From: Apostichopus japonicus
Taxonomy: Eukaryota; Echinodermata; Holothuroidea; Aspidochirotida; Stichopodidae
Assembly (NCBI RefSeq): GCF_037975245.1
Contig: NC_092564.1
Location: forward strand, 19,728,484 to 19,792,483
Length of the DNA stretch: 64,000 bases
Direction: 5' to 3'
Each line of letters starts with the position of its first letter. The first letter of the stretch is position 1. The notes under the pieces are model-generated. The model made no database searches. It was not told the DNA's origin and was given only the letters and a program-made list of their open reading frames with translations. The position numbers were made by a program, and so were the translations under genes. Shown one piece after another: positions 1 to 26,467 of the stretch.

Positions 1-2827
1 AATGTCACGAAGGCTTCCCAACCGGCAGTTTCCGCTGTCGTGAACTCCTTAATGTTGTAACCTAAGGTTTCCATCGACTACTTAGATCTTGTGCTGAGGT
101 CGTAAAGTCCACCGGACTAAATATAAATACGACGATCACCTGAGAGGTTATTGGTCTTTATTATGGAACGCCAAATGGAGAACAACCGGTGTAATGCTAA
201 ATCCTGTTTCCTTCATCTAACACTAAAAGCATTGCAGATATGCCTTTTTAAGCTATACCCAAAAATAATATGTTTACGTGGTTTACCACGGCTGTTAATA
301 AGCGTGTAAGTCAAGATACAAAATCCTCATATAGCTTTTTAAATAAATCTGTAAACCTTAACTTACATTTGGATTTAGAAGTAGAGTCAGCTTATCGCCC
401 CTGATTGTATAAGATTTGGGGCTTTGAAGAATTTATTCAAGTTGAAGCCGTTCATTTAAAGTTTTATAAGCAAATTCTTCATTTGCAAAAGTATGCGCGG
501 AACTTCATGGCCTATGGTGAATTACGGAGGAACAAACTAAATAATTGAGACACAAGTGATTCATATTTATTGATTAGAGTTGTGAACAGTTCTGACCATA
601 AAGCGTCTCATATGGTTTACATGTTTCTTAGAAACCTTCACGATGAAAAACATATGTAATTCACCTTGAATAGTTAAAGTTAAATCATTTTCATAAAGCT
701 GTAATTTGGCACATTTGGAATACCCTGATCAGTGACCATTTCAATTGAAACTCAGTGTATGCTTGTAGTGTACTATGAAACTTTGAGATAACACAATCGT
801 CTTACCCGGGGAAATTGTCCCCAAATAGAACATCTCTATTTAGGTCTGGTTGACCCGCTTTTGGACACCCATAAGTACCTCCATCTGATAGTAACTCTGA
901 GCTTCGTTGAACATATCATTGAAGTCTACTGCTGGCATTTTGCGACAATTTATCGGAATACCTAACTGCATGGACATCAATGAGTTCAATAGTTTATGGA
1001 ATAATAACTCAGATGAGTCAAATAACTCAGATATGTTGTTTAGAGAATATGATTTCGAAATAATATCATTAGTGCAAACAATGAGAAACTAAATTCAAAA
1101 TAAATTTTGCTAATAATAACAAATTGCAAATTCGTTGTTTCTTATTAAATATTAAATGGCATAGGCTCTAGTAAAACAAAAACGAAAATTACTAGTATTT
1201 TAAAATGGGCAAAAACCGGAATCTTGTCTTTAAATTTCATAAAAATTCATTAAACATACTTCGAGACAATGATTTTTGGACTGATTTCGAGTATCTTTTT
1301 GTATGCATATATAGTAGTCATTATGTTGCTCCAATCCTTCAGCACGCAGGTTTACAGTGTGATAATAACCGAAAAAGACAATATGCATTCTTTGGTACCA
1401 TGGCACCACCAAAGCTGTTTGGTTTTATTGCGTCACTTTATAGTCCCATTAAGTTTGATAAGCATGGCACCAACAGGCACTTGTGTTAGTCACACCACTT
1501 GATGCTTGGTGACTAATGAGCCCCAATATGAGAGGAACAGTGTACATAGCAATTAATTATATGATTTCCCCATCATGGTGCACGCTAAACTGAACTAGTG
1601 ACAGTTGGGGCGGGGGCAGGTGGAACAAGCCTGATCGAGCTCCTGCAGATTAGCAAAATAATAAGCTGAACTGGGTTATATTAGTAGAACCAACGATGGC
1701 ATGCATTAGCTCGTCATAGCATTTTCTGATCTCTCTCTGTGTTCTCGTATCAGATAATCACAATCGCCGGTAATTATTTACACACGTACGTTCTAGAATA
1801 ACGGTCCGAAAAGAATGGAGCGCGACCATAGACTTGGCCACAGGGTGTGTGTGTGGGGGGGGGGTCAATTCTCCCTCCTCCCACCATAATTGGCTTGAAT
1901 CTTCAATAGTTGGAAAATCAGTAGTCAAAAACATGGCAGTGGAAAATGTTATGTATCCAACATATCTTAAAATAATTTAAGCTGATTGAACTCTGATCGA
2001 ACAGGATAATTCTGATTTCTGAGTCAATAATATTTCGCTATTTGTAATATTCCAAAATTTTAGGCTTACATTATTACAAGATTTTATCTTGTTTCAATCA
2101 TAGGAGTTCAATCAATCTTGTTTTTAACTCCTTGTACAACCCATAACAAAGTTGATAATACTATACTAACTAACTCATCTCTGTATCTCTTGTCACACAA
2201 ATTTCCGTATATGTGGCATTTTTACTGACATAGCGCCATCACTTCGGGAACATTTTTTTTAAGTCAAATCTGCAACTGCAGCTGTACATACCACTGGATC
2301 AGTGGTATATACATACCATACGCATATATATACGCATATACAACTAGCCTGTATATGGCATAATTCAGTAGCATACTGGGTTCCTCCAAGATTAAAGTAA
2401 CTTTTCCGTTGCGAAGGAGAACGCGTCCTTCGTGATTCAAGATGTTTTATACTTCTGCATTTCGCTAACGAAAAGGACAAACCGGATCCCAACTGATATT
2501 GTCAGTCAGTATCACAGTCAGTTTAGAGCAATGTCGCCAATGCAAAATATTGATTATTTCCAGATTTAGCAATTGACAGGGCCTAACAGTAACACAAACA
2601 TGAACTTCGGGCCTAACGAGACACGTCTCGCCTAGCCATGTTACATGCTATTTAGGCCATCTATTCAGCCTAGGAACTAACTTAGTTTTTACTGGTTACC
2701 AATTGCCAATCTAGGCCTAGGCTAAATCATTCATAAAGTAATGGGAAAATTATAACTTTCGATGAAATAGTTTGCACTGAACAACAGCAATGTATTTGTT
2801 TTGCTAGCCTATGCCTAGGGTGTTAGT
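1..2827. other. No gene supported
   Basis: Only short ORFs below 100 codons occur, without recognisable domains, consistent splice sites or codon bias. The stretch is AT-rich. Around 2.59-2.81 kb the palindromic words TAGGCCTA and GCCTAGGC recur, a composition that also appears near 3.75, 28.3-28.5 and 50.35 kb. A G run lies near 1856. Confidence 0.5.
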
Positions 2828-3712
2828 ACTAAAACGAATGACAATTGCGTTACACATAATGAATGACAATATGTTGTACACACTAAAAAATTGCGTTGAC
2901 TAAAACGAATGACAGTGAATGACAGAGCAGACATTTGCTTCAACCGGATATCACAGTTCAGACTTCGAGGGTATATTAAAGCCACGCAAACCGAGTGGAC
3001 GCGAAGTGCGTGGCTTACAGATCTAGTATAGTACGGACAAGATACAAACGCACCTTATAGTAAGCGAAATTGTAAGTCTGATTTTAAAAAGTAAATTTAA
3101 CGTTATTTTTCTGATATTAATTGTTAGAAACTATATTCTTAAAACGGCTAAAAATTTCAGGAAGAGTCCTTATATTGGACATTTCTATGAAAATAATTTT
3201 TTTTTTTTTATAGGGGGGTGCAAAAGGGACTGGAAAAGGGCCAGTTATGGAGCTACTCTGTAACAGTGGCATAGGGAAGGGAGGGGGGCAAGGGGGCGCC
3301 CCCCTGGCAAAAATTTCCCCCCAAAAAATCGGGGTTAAAATCGCAAAAATCCGAGTTGACATTTTGCTACTGTGACAGGTGTTGTTGGAAATTCTTGAGC
3401 AAGATGTTTGACTTGCCCTGTGGGATTTTACCCCCTAAACTTAGGGAATTGAACCTAGGGAATTGAAAAAAATTGTTACTGTAAAAAAATTATTGTTCTT
3501 ATTCTTATTCCGCCCCTTGCAACCACGTAATATATGATTTTCCTCAAATCATTTTTGCGCAGAATACCAAAAACCCTTTACTCCACTCCGTTAATCATTC
3601 TATCTCTTCTCACCACCGTCCTTCATTGTTAGTCGTTGTCATTCGGTGTCATTCGCGAATGATAATTAACCCTGTACAAAGTCAATTGTCATATGCTGTC
3701 ATTCGTTTTAGT
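2828..3712. mobile_element. Non-autonomous element with inverted terminal repeats
   Basis: A 15-bp word, ACTAAAACGAATGAC, at 2828-2842 and again at 2899-2913 is perfectly inverted at 3698-3712; the second copy matches over 17 bp. Shorter TGTCATTCG copies lie near 3640-3660. The interior holds a T run, G/C-rich patches (3213-3310) and no coding capacity. No convincing target-site duplication was seen, so the superfamily is unknown. A nested G/C-rich insertion is possible. Confidence 0.5.
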
Positions 3713-19400: not shown

Positions 19401-20756
19401 TTGACCGGTCTTTTTTAAGTGTACTGAGACACAGATATTCCAATACTTGTATTAGGTTCATCAGGTTTACTTTCATCGTAAGAGAGAATAGAGAATATCG
19501 TTTTGAATAATTTCTAACGTTGCCCCTTGAAAGTCAAGGAAACTATAGATATGTGCCCTTTGTTGATTTACGGCACTGTATCGTTCTCATTACAAGTGCA
19601 AACGAGTATGTTAACAGACAATTTCATACTGGATATTTCAAGCTGAACATTCTCTTCACGACAAACAGAAAGGAGTATGCGCCTAATTAATTTTCTTTCT
19701 TTCAGCACATTTGAAAACGACATTCTTATTTCTTTTCAATCAGCATGTAAAACTGAAGTACAATTTTTCTCATGCAAACTGGTCTAAAACAGGTACTGTA
19801 GGAACTTTATGATTTTCTTATTTATTTATATTCGTAAGAGTCATACGAACTGGAGATCTCACAGGTAGCATGTTTTAAAGAATTAATTCCGTTAACACTA
19901 GCTAATGGAAGTGAAAGGCAACACATGGCTATGACCCAATGCCTTATATTATAAACCCCTCATAAATGAAAGGAAGCAGGCTGAGAGAAATATAATCTTG
20001 GAGTAAACAACATCGAGTGGTTGTTTCGGCGAGAGAAGCGTCTAGAGATTCTTACAGTCACAGTCTTTAAAGTTTTTCTTCAATGAGAGGCGGGCTGTCC
20101 AGATGGTTGAACAAGAATTTCATGGTTATGAAACATGGAATTTACAAGTGCGTCTTGCTCACAGACGGAAGACACATGAACATTTCATATTCGGTTTCTC
20201 AGTTTTGGATAAGATTTTTAGAGCAGAATTTCAATGTACAGTAGGATAGGGAAGATGAGTTTAGATAGGCCGTCTTTATTTTACCAATTTGACTTTGTCT
20301 AAGATCTCGAGCAGGGTAGTGAAAAGCTTGATTCTTCTTGAAGGCAAGGTTATACTGTATGAAACAGTGACAATTCAGGAGAGTGAATGGGTACTAAGGA
20401 TCAACATTGGCCAATTAAGCACTTATTTTGAAGCATTCCGGTAGTATGTTGTAATGTGTGATGTGTAAAATATTTCAATTAGGTAGTAAGGTTGTGAGGT
20501 AAAGACAAATTAATTTTTTTAAATGAAATGATAATGTAGCTTTGCTGATTTTTAATTTACTCTTGATTTCAACAGTCAGCAACTTTTATTGTACACAAAT
20601 GACTAAGCTTTTACAACAGAATGAACTTGACAACAGGGAGCTTCAAACGAGGTTACTGCTCTATTGTGGGCAGTTCTGTAAGATGAATTTTTATACATAT
20701 ACATACACATGGGATATATACATATGCATTTATATACATATATATATCTATATATA

Positions 20757-20792
<36 letters not shown>

Positions 20793-21040
20793 CACATATA
20801 TATACACATATATATATATATATATATATACATATATATATACGTATATATATGTTGGAATATAAGGGGCTGTTTTGAATGGTGCAAGGGGCCATCATAC
20901 CATGTAAAAAAAGAACAAAAACACTAAAGTTTATGCAAACAAAATGCTTGAATGTTTCATAATTCTGTCACATCCAGATAAAAGGGTGTCTTTTTTCTAA
21001 ATAACGCTGCCAAGATGACTGCCTGACAGTTTGGTTGATA
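16241..21040. other. 3' flank and possible 3'UTR of the ZFAND gene; intergenic
   Basis: No coding exon is supported. Features are poly-A/poly-C tracts (for example 18546-18560) and a TA repeat near 20.75 kb. Candidate minus-strand AATAAA signals (TTTATT on +) are at 20585-20590 and 20275-20280, 0.45-0.77 kb past the ZFAND stop; a longer 3'UTR is possible. Confidence 0.4.
20690..20852. repeat. TA-rich microsatellite
   Basis: TATA/TACA dinucleotide tract. The ORFs on both strands that run through it encode only Ile/Tyr repeats and are artefacts. Confidence 0.9.
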
Positions 21041-21189
21041 TTACAATTTTTGTATTTTCTCCCCTACTACCACTGGATTATTTTTCCTTATTTCTTCCTT
21101 CCCGTGGGTGCGATAATCGAAGGAGCATTCATGTTTGTCTGAGTAGCGATGTATACTGCAATATAGACCACCACATCTACATTCAAAAC
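21041..21189 (-). CDS. ZFAND terminal exon with second half of AN1
   Basis: Acceptor TCGACAG precedes 21189; the split Gly codon joins to F-E-C-R-C-G-G, completing the AN1 ligand set. Ends at TAA (21043-21041) after the conserved C-terminal motif. Confidence 0.92.
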
Positions 21190-24100
21190 CTGTCGAGACA
21201 AAAAACAAAGAAAGCAAGGAATTATTATACATATATTAGCACAGAGGATCGAAGGTCAATTAATTCAATATTCCTTGACGTGGTGGTGGATGGACATATC
21301 ATCCATAGCCCATCTCAAGGTCATTTGATCTGGTGTGAAATTAGGCAGAACTTTAACCATTCTCGACCTGCACAGACTGAAGTAGTTCTACACAGAGGTT
21401 CATCAAGTTATTGGATAACAAAACACTTGCACTTCGCTGCAATATTATGGCATACAATTTTTTTTCATTCTACATTTGGTGAACTGTTAGATATGTAAGG
21501 GAAAGTCTGACAAAATTTTGCTGACGTAACAACATTTGTCCAAATTCCCTTACACGTACATATTTTTCTAAATTAGTAATCAGTCAAATAATTTACTACT
21601 ATAAAACGTTCTTACTGTACATGTACAGTCTGTGTACATTTCTAAAAGCAACAAGTAATTGAAAGAGTAATTTCCTCCTTGACAAAATTTCCTGTTTCAT
21701 ATCCATTTAAAGATAGCATTGTGAGGTACTTGTAGTATAGAAGCACACATCCCCAAATATTCTTAAATGTCATCCCCAAATACTCTATAATGATCTTTAT
21801 GCCTTAAGGTCATACTGTAGGTGTTACGTTTAGCTCAATGGAATTCAACATTTTGAGCAATAACAACTAAGTCTGCTATTCTCCACCATATGTATTGTTG
21901 GCCGACATAAAAGTTAAGAATGCAAAACAAAATATGAAACTTCTTGTTAAAAGTATAGATGAATTTTGCAAAATATAATAGCGAGTTGTTATCCTTTTTG
22001 CAGATTGTAACTAAAGCACAATTTTTTTTATTTTAATTCAATTTCAAATACTGTAATCATAAAGGCACTGTGATTAATGGGTTTGGTACAGTAGAACTTT
22101 CTTGTTGCATCGAAGCAACCAAACAGGTCGACTTCAGAGACAGCCACTACCGGACCTCTACCTCTACAAGTATATGCTGTGCACAAACTATGAGAGGTAC
22201 TGTATGTTAATGCAAATCACTACCTAAAAACACAGGGAACTCCAGTTAACCCATGGTATGAACACCCAGCAAAGTGCACTTTCAACAAATACCGTAGGCA
22301 GTGCATAGAGTTGCAAAACTTGGTTACATGACTGCTACAATGCCATCACTCAAAATGGCAGATCATCACAGACCCCTCCAGGTTTGATGTGCATGTGACT
22401 TATGATTTAGAAGCTTTGACCTTTCACATCTTGTGTTCATTAATATCATCTTAACATTTGACACTTTTCAACTATTTAATATTAATAATTTCCAAAATAA
22501 GTATCATCATAATGACATTTGATGTCAGATCTTTTGAGCCTCTTACATTGTACCTCATGGGGGCTTAACAGCCAACCCCCAGGCTTACACTTCCAAAATT
22601 TGAAGTCGATCAGGTTTGCCATTTAGGAGTAGTTTGCGACACACTTAGATGCATAGTGACCATAGACGTCCACCGATGTTTGGCGCTGACTAATATGACA
22701 TAATCGTTGACAGTCTGTTATCTTACATAGAGTGTGATGGTTTCAGTCCTTTTGTCACAGTTTTGCACTTTTGGTTTAAATGACCATTGACAGCACGTAC
22801 AGAGGCTTTACGGACAATTCACAAGCAATAACTCTGCAGTCTTAAACTATAAGGTTTATTGCCATAGTCAAGTACCACTTTTTGCCCCCCCCCCCCCAAA
22901 TTATCAACAAGTACAATATCCCATGCCCAGTTAACCACTGTACATAAAGCTGGATCTGGTTTGAACATGAGATACATATATCTTTAAGTCTTGATCGCTA
23001 CTTCCTTTGATGTACTAAACAACTTTCAAACAGCATTACAACAAACTGACAAGCATTCTGGGCACAGGAGTTTGCTCGACAAGTGCACAAAACGTCACAA
23101 GATCAACAGCAATGTACCCACCTAGCGTTGTGCGGGATCCCGGTAGTCAAGTGAATCCCGGTATCCCGATCCCGGTATTGACTAGTCCTGATCACAGTGC
23201 AATGTGTAACTACTACCGGTATCGGGAAAACAACCGGAACCTTATTACATTCGTTTCGGTATCATTCCCGGGAATCCCGGACATAAAAAAAATATCTACG
23301 TGTTACTATTTGAAATAAAGAAAAGAAAACATGTTTATTTCTGGTTTCTGTGTTCTTAGTTTGAATAATATCTGATCAATTTACATACTGGCCTAGACCT
23401 ATGTATTAACGAATCAATAACGGTTGTAGTTACGATACCGGGATTCATGTTGCAACACTACCAGTTGTTTGAAATCTGACTACTGCACAACGCTATACCC
23501 ACCTGTGAGACCGACTTTTTTGCGACATGTATGGCATCTGTTCCTTTTCTTTTTTCCCTTCTCCCCATCTGAACCACCGTCAGAGGAGGAATTTGATGTA
23601 GTTGGACTAGGAGATGGTTCTTTATCTGAATTTAAATCTTTACATGATGGTGATATGATAGCAGCGGCCATAGCCTTGGCTCCATCTGCGTCTAATTCTG
23701 TGTTCTGATTGATAGGGGTGGTGGGGATTAAGGAAGGTGTTGTCGTAGAGGCAGTTGAAACTGGCAAATCTGGGATACTAGATGGAATTCCGCCTGCAGA
23801 CATTCCAGGCGGTGTAGTTGCACTACTTGTGGCTGTGTGATTGAAAAGAAAAAAAATAATAATAATCCTTTAGACAAGTGATTTGAGTTACATTGATCAC
23901 TGGATGGTAAAACTAAATGTTAACAGAAATACTTATAAAATACTTGCAAGTCTCTTATGTGGGTTGTGCTGTGCATCTTCAACTTAAGGTCTAGAGTTAC
24001 TTTAAACAACATGATGCACAACAGAACTGAAACAAAGCAAAGCTGTTAATGCATTGAGGCAAACAAATGTATAAACACAACCCACATAAGAGTGCACAGC

Positions 24101-26467
24101 ACAACCCACATAAGAGACTTGCAAGTATTTATATAGTACCTGATTTCCATAATCAGATAACCAATGCAAAACTAAACATAGTGGTTTCATCACCAAACAT
24201 GTAATTTAGAATTAGTCACTGTATGTTCAACTTGGGACCCAAAATGCAATACACAGGCTGTACGTAGTAATAGTAAAGAACTCATTTCTAGAACAGGCTC
24301 ATAACTAGTCTCTCTTATCAATGTGAGTAACACACTGTGCACTATTGTGCTTCATAGGCCTGAAGTGTACACAGGCTGCATAGAGCTCACTTCCATACAC
24401 GCATGTTTATCAGTTCTAGCTGTGTATACTTTTTATCGAGGTATGAACACAACTACGTCCTGAGGACAATAAAATTGTCGACGAAACTGAAACAATTTGC
24501 CTCTCCAAAACAACCTTTAACAACTTGCCCAGAAGACAAAGAACTGGTGCATACTTTCAAGAGCAGAGCATATAATAATCTAAGATAATAACAAAGTCAT
24601 GTTACACTGGCATGATGCCGGAAATGCCACCAAAAAGCAACTTCAGTTATGGACAACATAAAGAAAACATGCAGTGTCATAAAGACAACATACAGTGTAA
24701 CCTTGCAAGGAGGATTGGTACTACCCAGTTTTAATGGCTGAACAAAAGCACCCGTGGGAGATAGCAAAACTAAGGGAGAAACTGCACAAGTTAATGCTGT
24801 AACATCCTCCCAAGATGTAATAAAATTAAGAGGTTCTATAGTCCTTGTCACAGTATTAGACTGACCTTATCCAGACATGATACAGTATTATGTACTGTGT
24901 ACTGATCCATGCCGAACACAGAAATGGGAGTGAGAATCTATACCATTGAAATGGCCCAAAAATTTACCTGCATTGCAAAATGCTTATGAAGTTGATGGAC
25001 CTTGCCTTACTGTTAAGGGAATGTTTCAGAGCACTGATATTAACTGGTGATTGGAAGCTTCTAACATATCATTGGCAATGCAATACTTTGCTCACTGTAA
25101 AACATGAGACCCTTAAGATTTGTGATGCTTTAGAGGCATGTTTGACTACTACTGATTACCCACAGCCACAGTAGCCATTATGCGGGCCGTACAACTGCAA
25201 TAATATGATATTATGCTGATAGTACTCTCTCTGGTTGCCATGCTTCTAATACAAATGTCTACAGCTTTTCAGCTATCAGTTTTATCTCCAAGTACTGTGT
25301 AGCAGCCTACACGGCACAAACCAATGTAATAGTATACCAGATTCTTTTACCTTTATTATGCAAACGAAATGCAAATGTACTTGTTCAGTGGCATGCGTAA
25401 CTGGTTAACACCAATGTTACAGTATGTTCATTTACTGGTTAGATGATATTACAAAAATGTTGAGATATGACAAAAATGTTGACACATAACTGGCAGGGAG
25501 TTTTTGAAGTTGAAAATGTGACCTTCTTACTAGCAATCTGCACACCCTCACGCCTGGTCTGGTCAAATCCTCTTCCCACTAAAGCTATTCTATTGTAACA
25601 CTACTGTACATGCTTACTTAACAGAAGATGTGTGACAACCTAGGGCTGTCAAGCAAATTATAAGTGCAAATATTAAGCAGCATGGAAGCACTTGGTCTGA
25701 GGCATGCAGGAAGATATGAAACTACAAGAGGGCAACACAGCAGGACTCGCATGGCTCACAAAACTTGACACCTTAGATTGGGGATAAGACTCGTTCTCTC
25801 ACTGCTTCAGTTACGTTGCCCTGGAACTTTTTTCGTCCCTGTCTGTCTGGAATGATTAACATTATTGCTCAAACCAACACTCCTTCTAAGTTCCTACCTC
25901 TAATACCTTCGAGAGGATCTCATTGATACATATTCAGTAGTGACAGAACAAGCTCTATGTTGTCTATTTGTAATTTTGCAACAAGCTGGACCAACATTGC
26001 AAAGGAAATTTCAACATCCAAATTCAAAGTTTCCTACAGTTGTATCACATGATGTAAAAAATCGATCCTGCGTTTGAAGATATTCAAACTGGACTTGGCG
26101 GGGAAACCGTCAAAAGATCTACCATCTCACAAATATTGCCTGTCAATGAAGTGTAGAGATACCATTTTCTTCTTATAAAGTCCACAGAATAAGTCTGCAC
26201 AAAACTTTCTTGGTTTATACTGAAATATGCTGCACTTCATCACACAAACTAAGAAAATGGCCAATTTGCTCATATGTCAACTATGTAGAGATGAAACACA
26301 AAGTTGTGAAAACCCTTACCTAAAGCAGGTGAATTTTGTTTTTTCCTTTGATAATCCTTAAAGCATTTGGAGCACATCCCCTCGGTTGCAGCACTTCCAT
26401 AGAATCCACATCCATTCCGACATTGATTTCCAGAGGAAAGTTCTTTGCTTCCATTGCCACTGTCCAT
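21041..26467 (-). CDS. A20/AN1 zinc-finger protein, ZFAND5/6 type (3 coding exons)
   Basis: Minus-strand exons 26467-26320, 23832-23503 and 21189-21041 join in frame to give 208 residues, the usual size for ZFAND5/6. An A20-type finger lies at residues 16-35 (Cys16, 20, 32, 35). A Ser/Thr/Pro-rich linker follows. A complete AN1 finger covers residues 149-181 with Cys149, 152, 163, 165, 170, His173, His179 and Cys181, and the tail has the conserved [12 protein letters not shown] motif. Family members bind ubiquitin through A20 and act in proteasomal turnover and NF-kB signalling in the cytosol. All ligands are present and the frame is intact, so the gene looks functional. ZFAND5 and ZFAND6 are vertebrate duplicates, so one invertebrate orthologue of both is expected. 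Two introns split the gene, one of them within AN1. Confidence 0.93.
23123..23495. mobile_element. hAT-like MITE inserted at a ZFAND splice donor
   Basis: 373 bp bounded by perfect 11-bp inverted repeats (TAGCGTTGTGC at 23123-23133; GCACAACGCTA at 23485-23495) and flanked by a perfect 8-bp duplication, TACCCACC, at 23115-23122 and 23496-23503. Eight-bp duplications and TAGNG ends are typical of hAT transposons. GGGATCCCGG-like palindromes lie subterminally. There is no transposase. The right duplication carries the ZFAND donor (GTGGGTA on the minus strand). Confidence 0.9.
23503..23832 (-). CDS. ZFAND exon with linker and first half of AN1
   Basis: Entered after CACACAG in phase 1; 109 whole codons; left in phase 1 at a GTGGGT donor starting at 23502. 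Encodes the Ser/Thr/Pro-rich, Lys-rich linker and the first two AN1 cysteines. The last exon base and the first seven intron bases belong to an 8-bp target-site duplication of an inserted MITE. Confidence 0.88.
23938..24130. repeat. Perfect 38-bp inverted repeat (hairpin) in a ZFAND intron
   Basis: The arm at 23938-23975 is the exact reverse complement of 24093-24130, separated by 117 bp, with imperfect extension outside. An extra partial copy (ACAACCCACATAAGAG) sits at 24077-24092, next to the right arm. As part of the ZFAND pre-mRNA it would fold into a long stem. No target duplication was recognised. Confidence 0.85.

What the first reader, a model, noticed from the sequence alone, without database searches (positions are those of the whole stretch)
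23115..23503. hAT-like MITE inserted exactly at a ZFAND splice donor, with the donor preserved in the target duplication
The 8-bp duplication TACCCACC on both sides of the 373-bp element is, on the coding strand, GGTGGGTA: the last exon base plus the first seven intron bases. Insertion therefore split the exon/intron junction but rebuilt a working donor by duplicating it. A second copy of the donor now sits at the far end of the element (23115-23122). Use of that copy would retain 381 nt and stop translation soon after the first AN1 cysteines (the frame reads ...GYSVVQ, then stop). The event shows how a target duplication can make an otherwise destructive insertion neutral, and may create an A20-only isoform.
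Basis: partly seen in the sequence, partly recalled or inferred. Interest (0 to 1): 0.75.

Follow-up and report, generated by a model that had tools for sequence, protein, structure and literature searches.

The report
Transposon inserted across a splice donor
In the sea cucumber Apostichopus japonicus, a shortened hAT-type DNA transposon landed exactly across an exon/intron boundary of a zinc-finger gene, and the usual 8-base target duplication left a usable-looking splice site at both ends, so the gene most likely still works; it is a neat but fairly ordinary accident.

Summary
A 373-bp element (23123-23495) with 11-bp inverted ends lies between two copies of TACCCACC, on the coding strand G|GTGGGTA: last exon base plus first seven intron bases of a ZFAND6-type gene of Apostichopus japonicus. 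The element belongs to a repeated hAT-like family, seen mostly as ~1.34-kb copies; 39 of 40 distinct complete copies scored carry 8-bp duplications. The 373-bp form was found once: an internal-deletion derivative, not one of a homogeneous MITE set. The exon-side donor is unchanged through intron +7, so for the transcript this equals an insertion at +8. It pairs better with U1 than the far copy (-14.5 vs -11.3 kcal/mol), and the recorded protein has that join. Far-donor use would retain 381 nt and stop 358 nt before the junction, so NMD is likelier than an A20-only protein. Rebuilding the donor follows from any 8-bp staggered insertion in this register. Rough arithmetic expects 0.4-0.8 such hits per 400 copies (0.04-0.08 per 40). 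RNA and empty alleles were not available. Unproven bold reading: the far duplication reads TAG|GTGGGT, so the 381-nt unit could be spliced out as a nested intron; its acceptor looks poor.

The parts
23123..23495 (.). 373-bp internally deleted hAT-like element; TIRs 23123-23133 and 23485-23495
   Evidence: 11-bp perfect TIRs; left 295 nt and right ~79 nt each match ~1.34-kb family copies; 960-972 nt missing relative to six full copies compared, with a 2-nt overlap at the junction
23496..23503 (-). exon-side target duplication GGTGGGTA = last exon base + intron +1 to +7; the presumed working donor (GT at 23502-23501)
   Evidence: U1 duplex -14.5 kcal/mol
23115..23122 (-). intron-side target duplication; second potential donor (GT at 23121-23120); with the element's terminal TA it also reads TAG|GTGGGT
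   Evidence: U1 duplex -11.3 kcal/mol
26320..26467 (-). ZFAND6-type gene, coding part of exon A (A20 zinc finger)
23503..23832 (-). exon B (330 nt; linker and first AN1 cysteines), ending at the insertion
21041..21189 (-). coding part of exon C (rest of the AN1 finger, to the stop codon)
21190..23502 (-). intron 2 (2313 nt), whose first 381 nt are one duplication register plus the element

Best explanation
A hAT-like transposon without a transposase of its own inserted with an 8-bp stagger across the exon B/intron 2 junction of the ZFAND6-type gene, presumably moved by a transposase made elsewhere. Gap repair copied the 8-bp target G|GTGGGTA to both ends. The exon therefore kept its own donor untouched through intron +7, and the element became the first part of the intron. 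Splicing goes from the exon-side donor (23502) to the old acceptor (21190), giving the normal 208-aa protein. The far donor is a weaker decoy; occasional use would give a stop-containing, NMD-prone transcript. Shown: anatomy, family, duplication, gene model, the recorded protein join. Inferred: actual donor use, NMD, the empty ancestral site, the source of transposase, and whether the internal deletion came before or after insertion.
For: Perfect 8-bp duplication and 11-bp TIRs. 39 of 40 distinct complete family copies scored have 8-bp duplications, with excess T at position 2 (20 of 39) and A at position 7 (22 of 39); symmetrised 42 of 78, binomial p 3.6e-5 against an assumed 0.315. Element halves match ~1.34-kb copies. 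Predicted protein identical to A. japonicus BSL78_19534, 208 of 208 residues, with A20 and AN1 above Pfam cut-offs. Five genome matches to the protein: the three exons here and two weak partial ones elsewhere. U1 duplex energies: exon-side -14.5, far -11.3, pre-insertion -13.3, perfect site -15.0, exon A donor of the same gene -10.1 kcal/mol; with recalled vertebrate site frequencies the scores are 5.93 exon-side, 4.35 far, 5.87 exon A, and the next GT in 23101-23520 scores 0.09.
Against: No RNA-seq, no empty allele and no related-species DNA could be examined. The protein record is an annotation, not proof of splicing. The far donor, though weaker than the exon-side one, pairs with U1 better than the exon A donor does (the frequency score ranks those two the other way), and in a predicted fold of the region its G|GTGGG bases are somewhat more open than those of the exon-side donor, so it could be used. 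The window's own target (TACCCACC) lacks the family's T2 and A7.
Confidence: 0.87

Rival explanations
1. The two donors are both used and the far one makes a regulated truncated A20-only ZFAND, or lowers expression through NMD.
For: The far donor is intact with GTGGGTACAT downstream as in the original, U1 duplex -11.3 kcal/mol, better than the exon A donor at -10.1; its core is predicted more open in the fold. The frame stops after 166 aa, keeping A20.
Against: Weaker than the exon-side donor (TAG instead of CAG at -3 to -1). The exon would grow from 330 to 711 nt. Stop 358 nt upstream of the junction predicts NMD rather than protein. The one A. japonicus record among the 120 listed of 1946 matches is full length; its cluster holds four member sequences that I did not see separately.
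Confidence: 0.1
2. Introner-like or recursive splicing: the 381-nt unit GT...TAG is removed first as a nested intron, recreating the pre-insertion donor, which is then spliced to the old acceptor.
For: The far duplication with the element end reads TAG|GTGGGT, and cutting out the 381-nt unit gives exactly the collapsed empty-site sequence. YTNAY matches begin 27 and 32 nt upstream of the acceptor AG. The terminal repeats pair in the predicted RNA fold (MFE z -3.69, 0 of 100 shuffles as stable).
Against: Acceptor tract only 44% pyrimidine; 78.5% of 121 AGs tested in the intron do as well or better, against 81% pyrimidine for the real acceptor. It is not needed, because the exon-side donor is already intact. 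The pairing follows from having TIRs.
Confidence: 0.04
3. The element made the splice junction itself: intron 2 is a new intron and the ancestral exon/intron boundary lay elsewhere.
For: None direct; the intron position could not be compared with other echinoderms here, and the C6 paralog has an AN1 exon starting at a different codon.
Against: Intron 2 is 2313 nt, of which only 381 nt is element plus one duplication; its own acceptor lies 1932 nt beyond the far duplication.
Confidence: 0.03

Closest known systems
hAT superfamily nonautonomous elements (Ac/hobo/Hermes type)
   Same: 8-bp target duplications; family target bias T at 2 and A at 7 like Hermes nTnnnnAn (PMC2803484, passages read); short TIRs beginning TAGNG
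   Different: no open frame over 106 codons in the four longer copies examined; no autonomous partner tied to it; the window's own target departs from the consensus
Introners (intron-making DNA transposons; PMC9860276, passages read)
   Same: TIRs and target duplication; a 5' splice site lies in the duplication; the unit GT...TAG could be removed without changing the mRNA
   Different: inserted at an existing intron's donor, not in an exon; among the flanks of 39 copies read by eye only this one sits at a clear splice junction; no evidence that the unit is spliced by itself
Stwintrons / recursive splice sites (PMC12403724, abstract and passages read)
   Same: a possible intron nested at the donor of another intron
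   Different: the stwintrons there split the donor between nt 1 and 2 and show no target duplications; here the donor is duplicated whole

Membership tests
hAT superfamily | 8-bp target duplication | tested here: met
   window copy perfect; 39 of 40 distinct complete copies scored are within one mismatch
hAT superfamily | short TIRs with hAT-type ends (pattern YARNG recalled) | tested here: met
   TAGCGTTGTGC, family also TAGGGTTGTGC
hAT superfamily | target preference nTnnnnAn (seen in many hATs, not defining for all) | tested here: met
   family: T2 20 of 39, A7 22 of 39, both 11 of 39; the window's own site has neither
hAT superfamily | relative with hAT transposase sharing the TIRs | tested here: inconclusive
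   150 hAT dimerisation-domain matches scored of 633 first-look candidates in the genome; 1 kb beyond the domain read for 10 of them: 6 TIR-like matches at two mismatches on both strands, 4 of them in the transposase's direction, against 2.8 expected on both strands from shuffles; upstream ends and duplications were not read
MITE (short, homogeneous, high-copy) | many copies of about the same short length | tested here: not met
   373-bp form once; the other 38 copies with duplications are 835-3028 bp, 31 of them 1321-1369; (40 candidates scored of 416) the 39 left-end hits other than the window copy stop within 9 bases of the same point. Capped lists, so a second 373-bp copy is not strictly excluded
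Introner | insertion into an exon creating a new intron | tested here: not met
   element lies inside a 2313-nt intron with its own far acceptor; the age of that intron was not testable
Introner | many family copies bounded by splice sites | tested here: inconclusive
   flanks of 39 copies read by eye; two with splice-like flanks (L014, L073) had no long open frame beside them; the rest were not tested for coding
ZFAND5/6 gene | N-terminal A20 and C-terminal AN1 fingers | tested here: met
   PF01754 45.4 bits, PF01428 36.7 bits, both above cut-off; best match among solved chains is AN1-type zinc finger protein 5

The most novel reading that the evidence does not exclude
A hAT element end plus a donor-derived target duplication makes a ready recursive-splicing unit in an animal gene: TAG|GTGGGT, a zero-length exon that lets the spliceosome remove the transposon first and restore the original donor. 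If real, any hAT with ends ...TA that lands on a G|GT donor would be born spliceable, a step between an intronic insertion and an introner.
Probability: 0.04. Interest if true: 0.65.

Novelty: new member of a known kind. Interest (0 to 1): 0.27.

Why it matters
It is a clean natural example of a duplicated 5' splice site made by a transposon: identical GTGGGTA copies 381 nt apart, differing only in the exonic bases before -1 and the wider context. That makes it a tidy test of donor choice, NMD and nested splicing. It does not change any view of how transposons or ZFAND genes work.

Tried and rejected
Empty site: the gene's three exons were each found once in the assembly, so no second haplotype or retrocopy shows the uninserted junction. 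Paralog test of intron age: the C6 paralog's AN1 exon starts at a different codon, so it does not settle the age of this intron. Longer family members (L071, L072, L079, about 2.6 kb) were tested as autonomous partners: longest stop-to-stop stretch 106 codons; they were not searched against transposases. Target preference as the cause of the donor hit: rejected, because the window target lacks both family-preferred bases. Further splice-site insertions in the family: L014 (CAG|GTAAGG before the element) and L073 (pyrimidine tract and AG after it) had no open frame beside them.

Errors of mine: one search used exon B one base too long and so gave a wrong frame and a wrong stop distance (its donor scores are not touched by this); one search cut intron 2 three bases short; both were redone. 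The protein typed had two surplus residues (GK) at the exon A/B join; searches used the right one. The 5' splice-site frequencies and the U1 5' end were recalled.

Literature: the listings of searches showed no report of this insertion (4, 3, 15, 1, 3, 0 and 5 papers listed); most were seen as listings only. The Huff 2016 introner paper was not held and is known here only as cited in PMC12403724.

Full report
What is there. The window is part of contig C4 of a 671,581,487-base, 35-contig genome. Total size and the 23 large contigs seen in the locus lists (18.20-46.04 Mb) are close to the published Apostichopus japonicus assembly (671.64 Mb, 34 scaffolds, 23 chromosomes of 18.21-46.02 Mb; PMC10344927, passages read). 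The gene supports the species: the protein predicted here is identical over 208 of 208 residues to a record named BSL78_19534 of A. japonicus, 'AN1-type zinc finger protein 6'.

Gene. Three coding exons on the minus strand: A 26320-26467 (A20 finger), B 23503-23832, C 21041-21189 (rest of AN1). Introns are 2487 and 2313 nt, both GT-AG. Pfam A20 and AN1 are above cut-off. The protein search of the whole genome gave five matches: the three exons and two weak partial matches elsewhere.

Element. 23123-23495, 373 bp, 11-bp perfect TIRs, flanked by TACCCACC at 23115-23122 and 23496-23503. The genome search gave 41 matches: the window copy itself, 39 left-end matches that stop at or near one internal point (37 at query 303, i.e. 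element nt 295, one at 300, one at 294) and one right-end match that starts at 292. The right end, searched alone, gave 40 matches. Both lists are capped (40 scored of 416 and of 211 first-look candidates), so copy number is not known. From 83 loci (many overlapping), my script scored 40 distinct copies with both ends; loci without a full right end in the fetched stretch were set aside. 39 have an 8-bp duplication with at most one mismatch, 36 of them perfect; one (L013) has none. Lengths of the 39: 373 once, 835 once, 1251 once, 1321-1369 in 31, and 2152-3028 in 5. Against six full copies the window element lacks 960-972 nt, with a 2-nt overlap at the break. So it is an internal-deletion derivative seen once. 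Three 2.6-kb copies and one 1.34-kb copy have no stop-to-stop stretch above 106 codons.

Class. The duplication bases are biased to T at 2 (20 of 39) and A at 7 (22 of 39), symmetrised 42 of 78, p 3.6e-5 against an assumed 0.315 background, as in Hermes (PMC2803484, passages). hAT dimerisation domains are common in the genome (150 scored of 633 candidates). One kilobase beyond ten of them held 6 TIR-like matches at two mismatches, 4 in the transposase's direction, against 2.8 expected on both strands: suggestive at most. 'hAT-like, without its own transposase' is well supported; the mobilising transposase is not identified.

Age. In the left 295 nt the window copy differs from the consensus of 39 others at 10 of 291 positions (7 of 259 outside CpG); the others average 3.3% over all positions. 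Two of the ten substitutions and a 4-base insertion are private; the other eight are shared with some copies. In the right end, against 22 others, three substitutions past the deletion point are private and two are shared with one other copy each. It is an ordinary-aged member of its family; no rate for sea cucumbers was used, so no date is given.

Splicing. The exon-side donor CAG|GTGGGT is unchanged through +7. With an unmodified U1 5' end, duplex energies are -14.5 (exon side), -11.3 (far side), -13.3 (before insertion), -15.0 (perfect) and -10.1 kcal/mol (the exon A donor); recalled site frequencies score 5.93, 4.35 and 5.87 for exon side, far side and exon A. Both measures favour the exon side over the far side; they disagree on far side against exon A. 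In a predicted fold the far donor's core is somewhat more open, which speaks mildly against my reading. Using the far donor keeps 381 nt, ends the protein at 166 aa and leaves 358 nt between stop and junction, which predicts NMD (rule recalled). The recorded protein has the normal join. Hence normal splicing is most likely, and the insertion is close to silent at the protein level.

Is it surprising? With 19,828 genes (PMC10344927) and an assumed 5-10 introns each, 7 registers of an 8-bp target cross each donor: 0.10-0.21% of the genome. That gives 0.4-0.8 hits per 400 random insertions and 0.04-0.08 per 40. The family's true copy number is unknown; 416 is the number of first-look candidates, so 400 is rough. 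Over all DNA transposons of the genome such hits should be many. The duplication's protective effect is built into the staggered cut.

A bolder reading. The element's terminal TA plus the duplication's first G gives TAG directly before GTGGGT. Removing the 381-nt GT...TAG unit restores the collapsed pre-insertion sequence exactly. Introners that take their 5' splice site from the duplication are known (PMC9860276, passages). But the acceptor is poor: 44% pyrimidine, matched or beaten by 78.5% of 121 AGs in the intron, against 81% for the true acceptor. The RNA is predicted to fold back through its TIRs (MFE -115.3, z -3.69), as any TIR element would. I give this 4%.

Limits. No RNA data, no other individual and no other sea cucumber DNA were available.

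Noticed in passing
23938-24130: Intron 1 of the same gene holds a perfect 38-nt inverted repeat (arms 23938-23975 and 24093-24130, 117 nt apart), looking like another MITE-type insertion.
   Followed up: no
L014 and L073: Two other family copies have splice-site-like flanks (CAG|GTAAGG before the element; pyrimidine tract and AG after it), but no long open reading frame beside them.
   Followed up: partly
L071, L072, L079: A 2.6-kb subfamily shares the ends of the 1.34-kb family but carries about 1.5 kb of different interior without a long open frame.
   Followed up: partly
20680-20855: Long AT-rich microsatellite about 190 bases and more past the ZFAND stop codon on the gene's 3' side.
   Followed up: no
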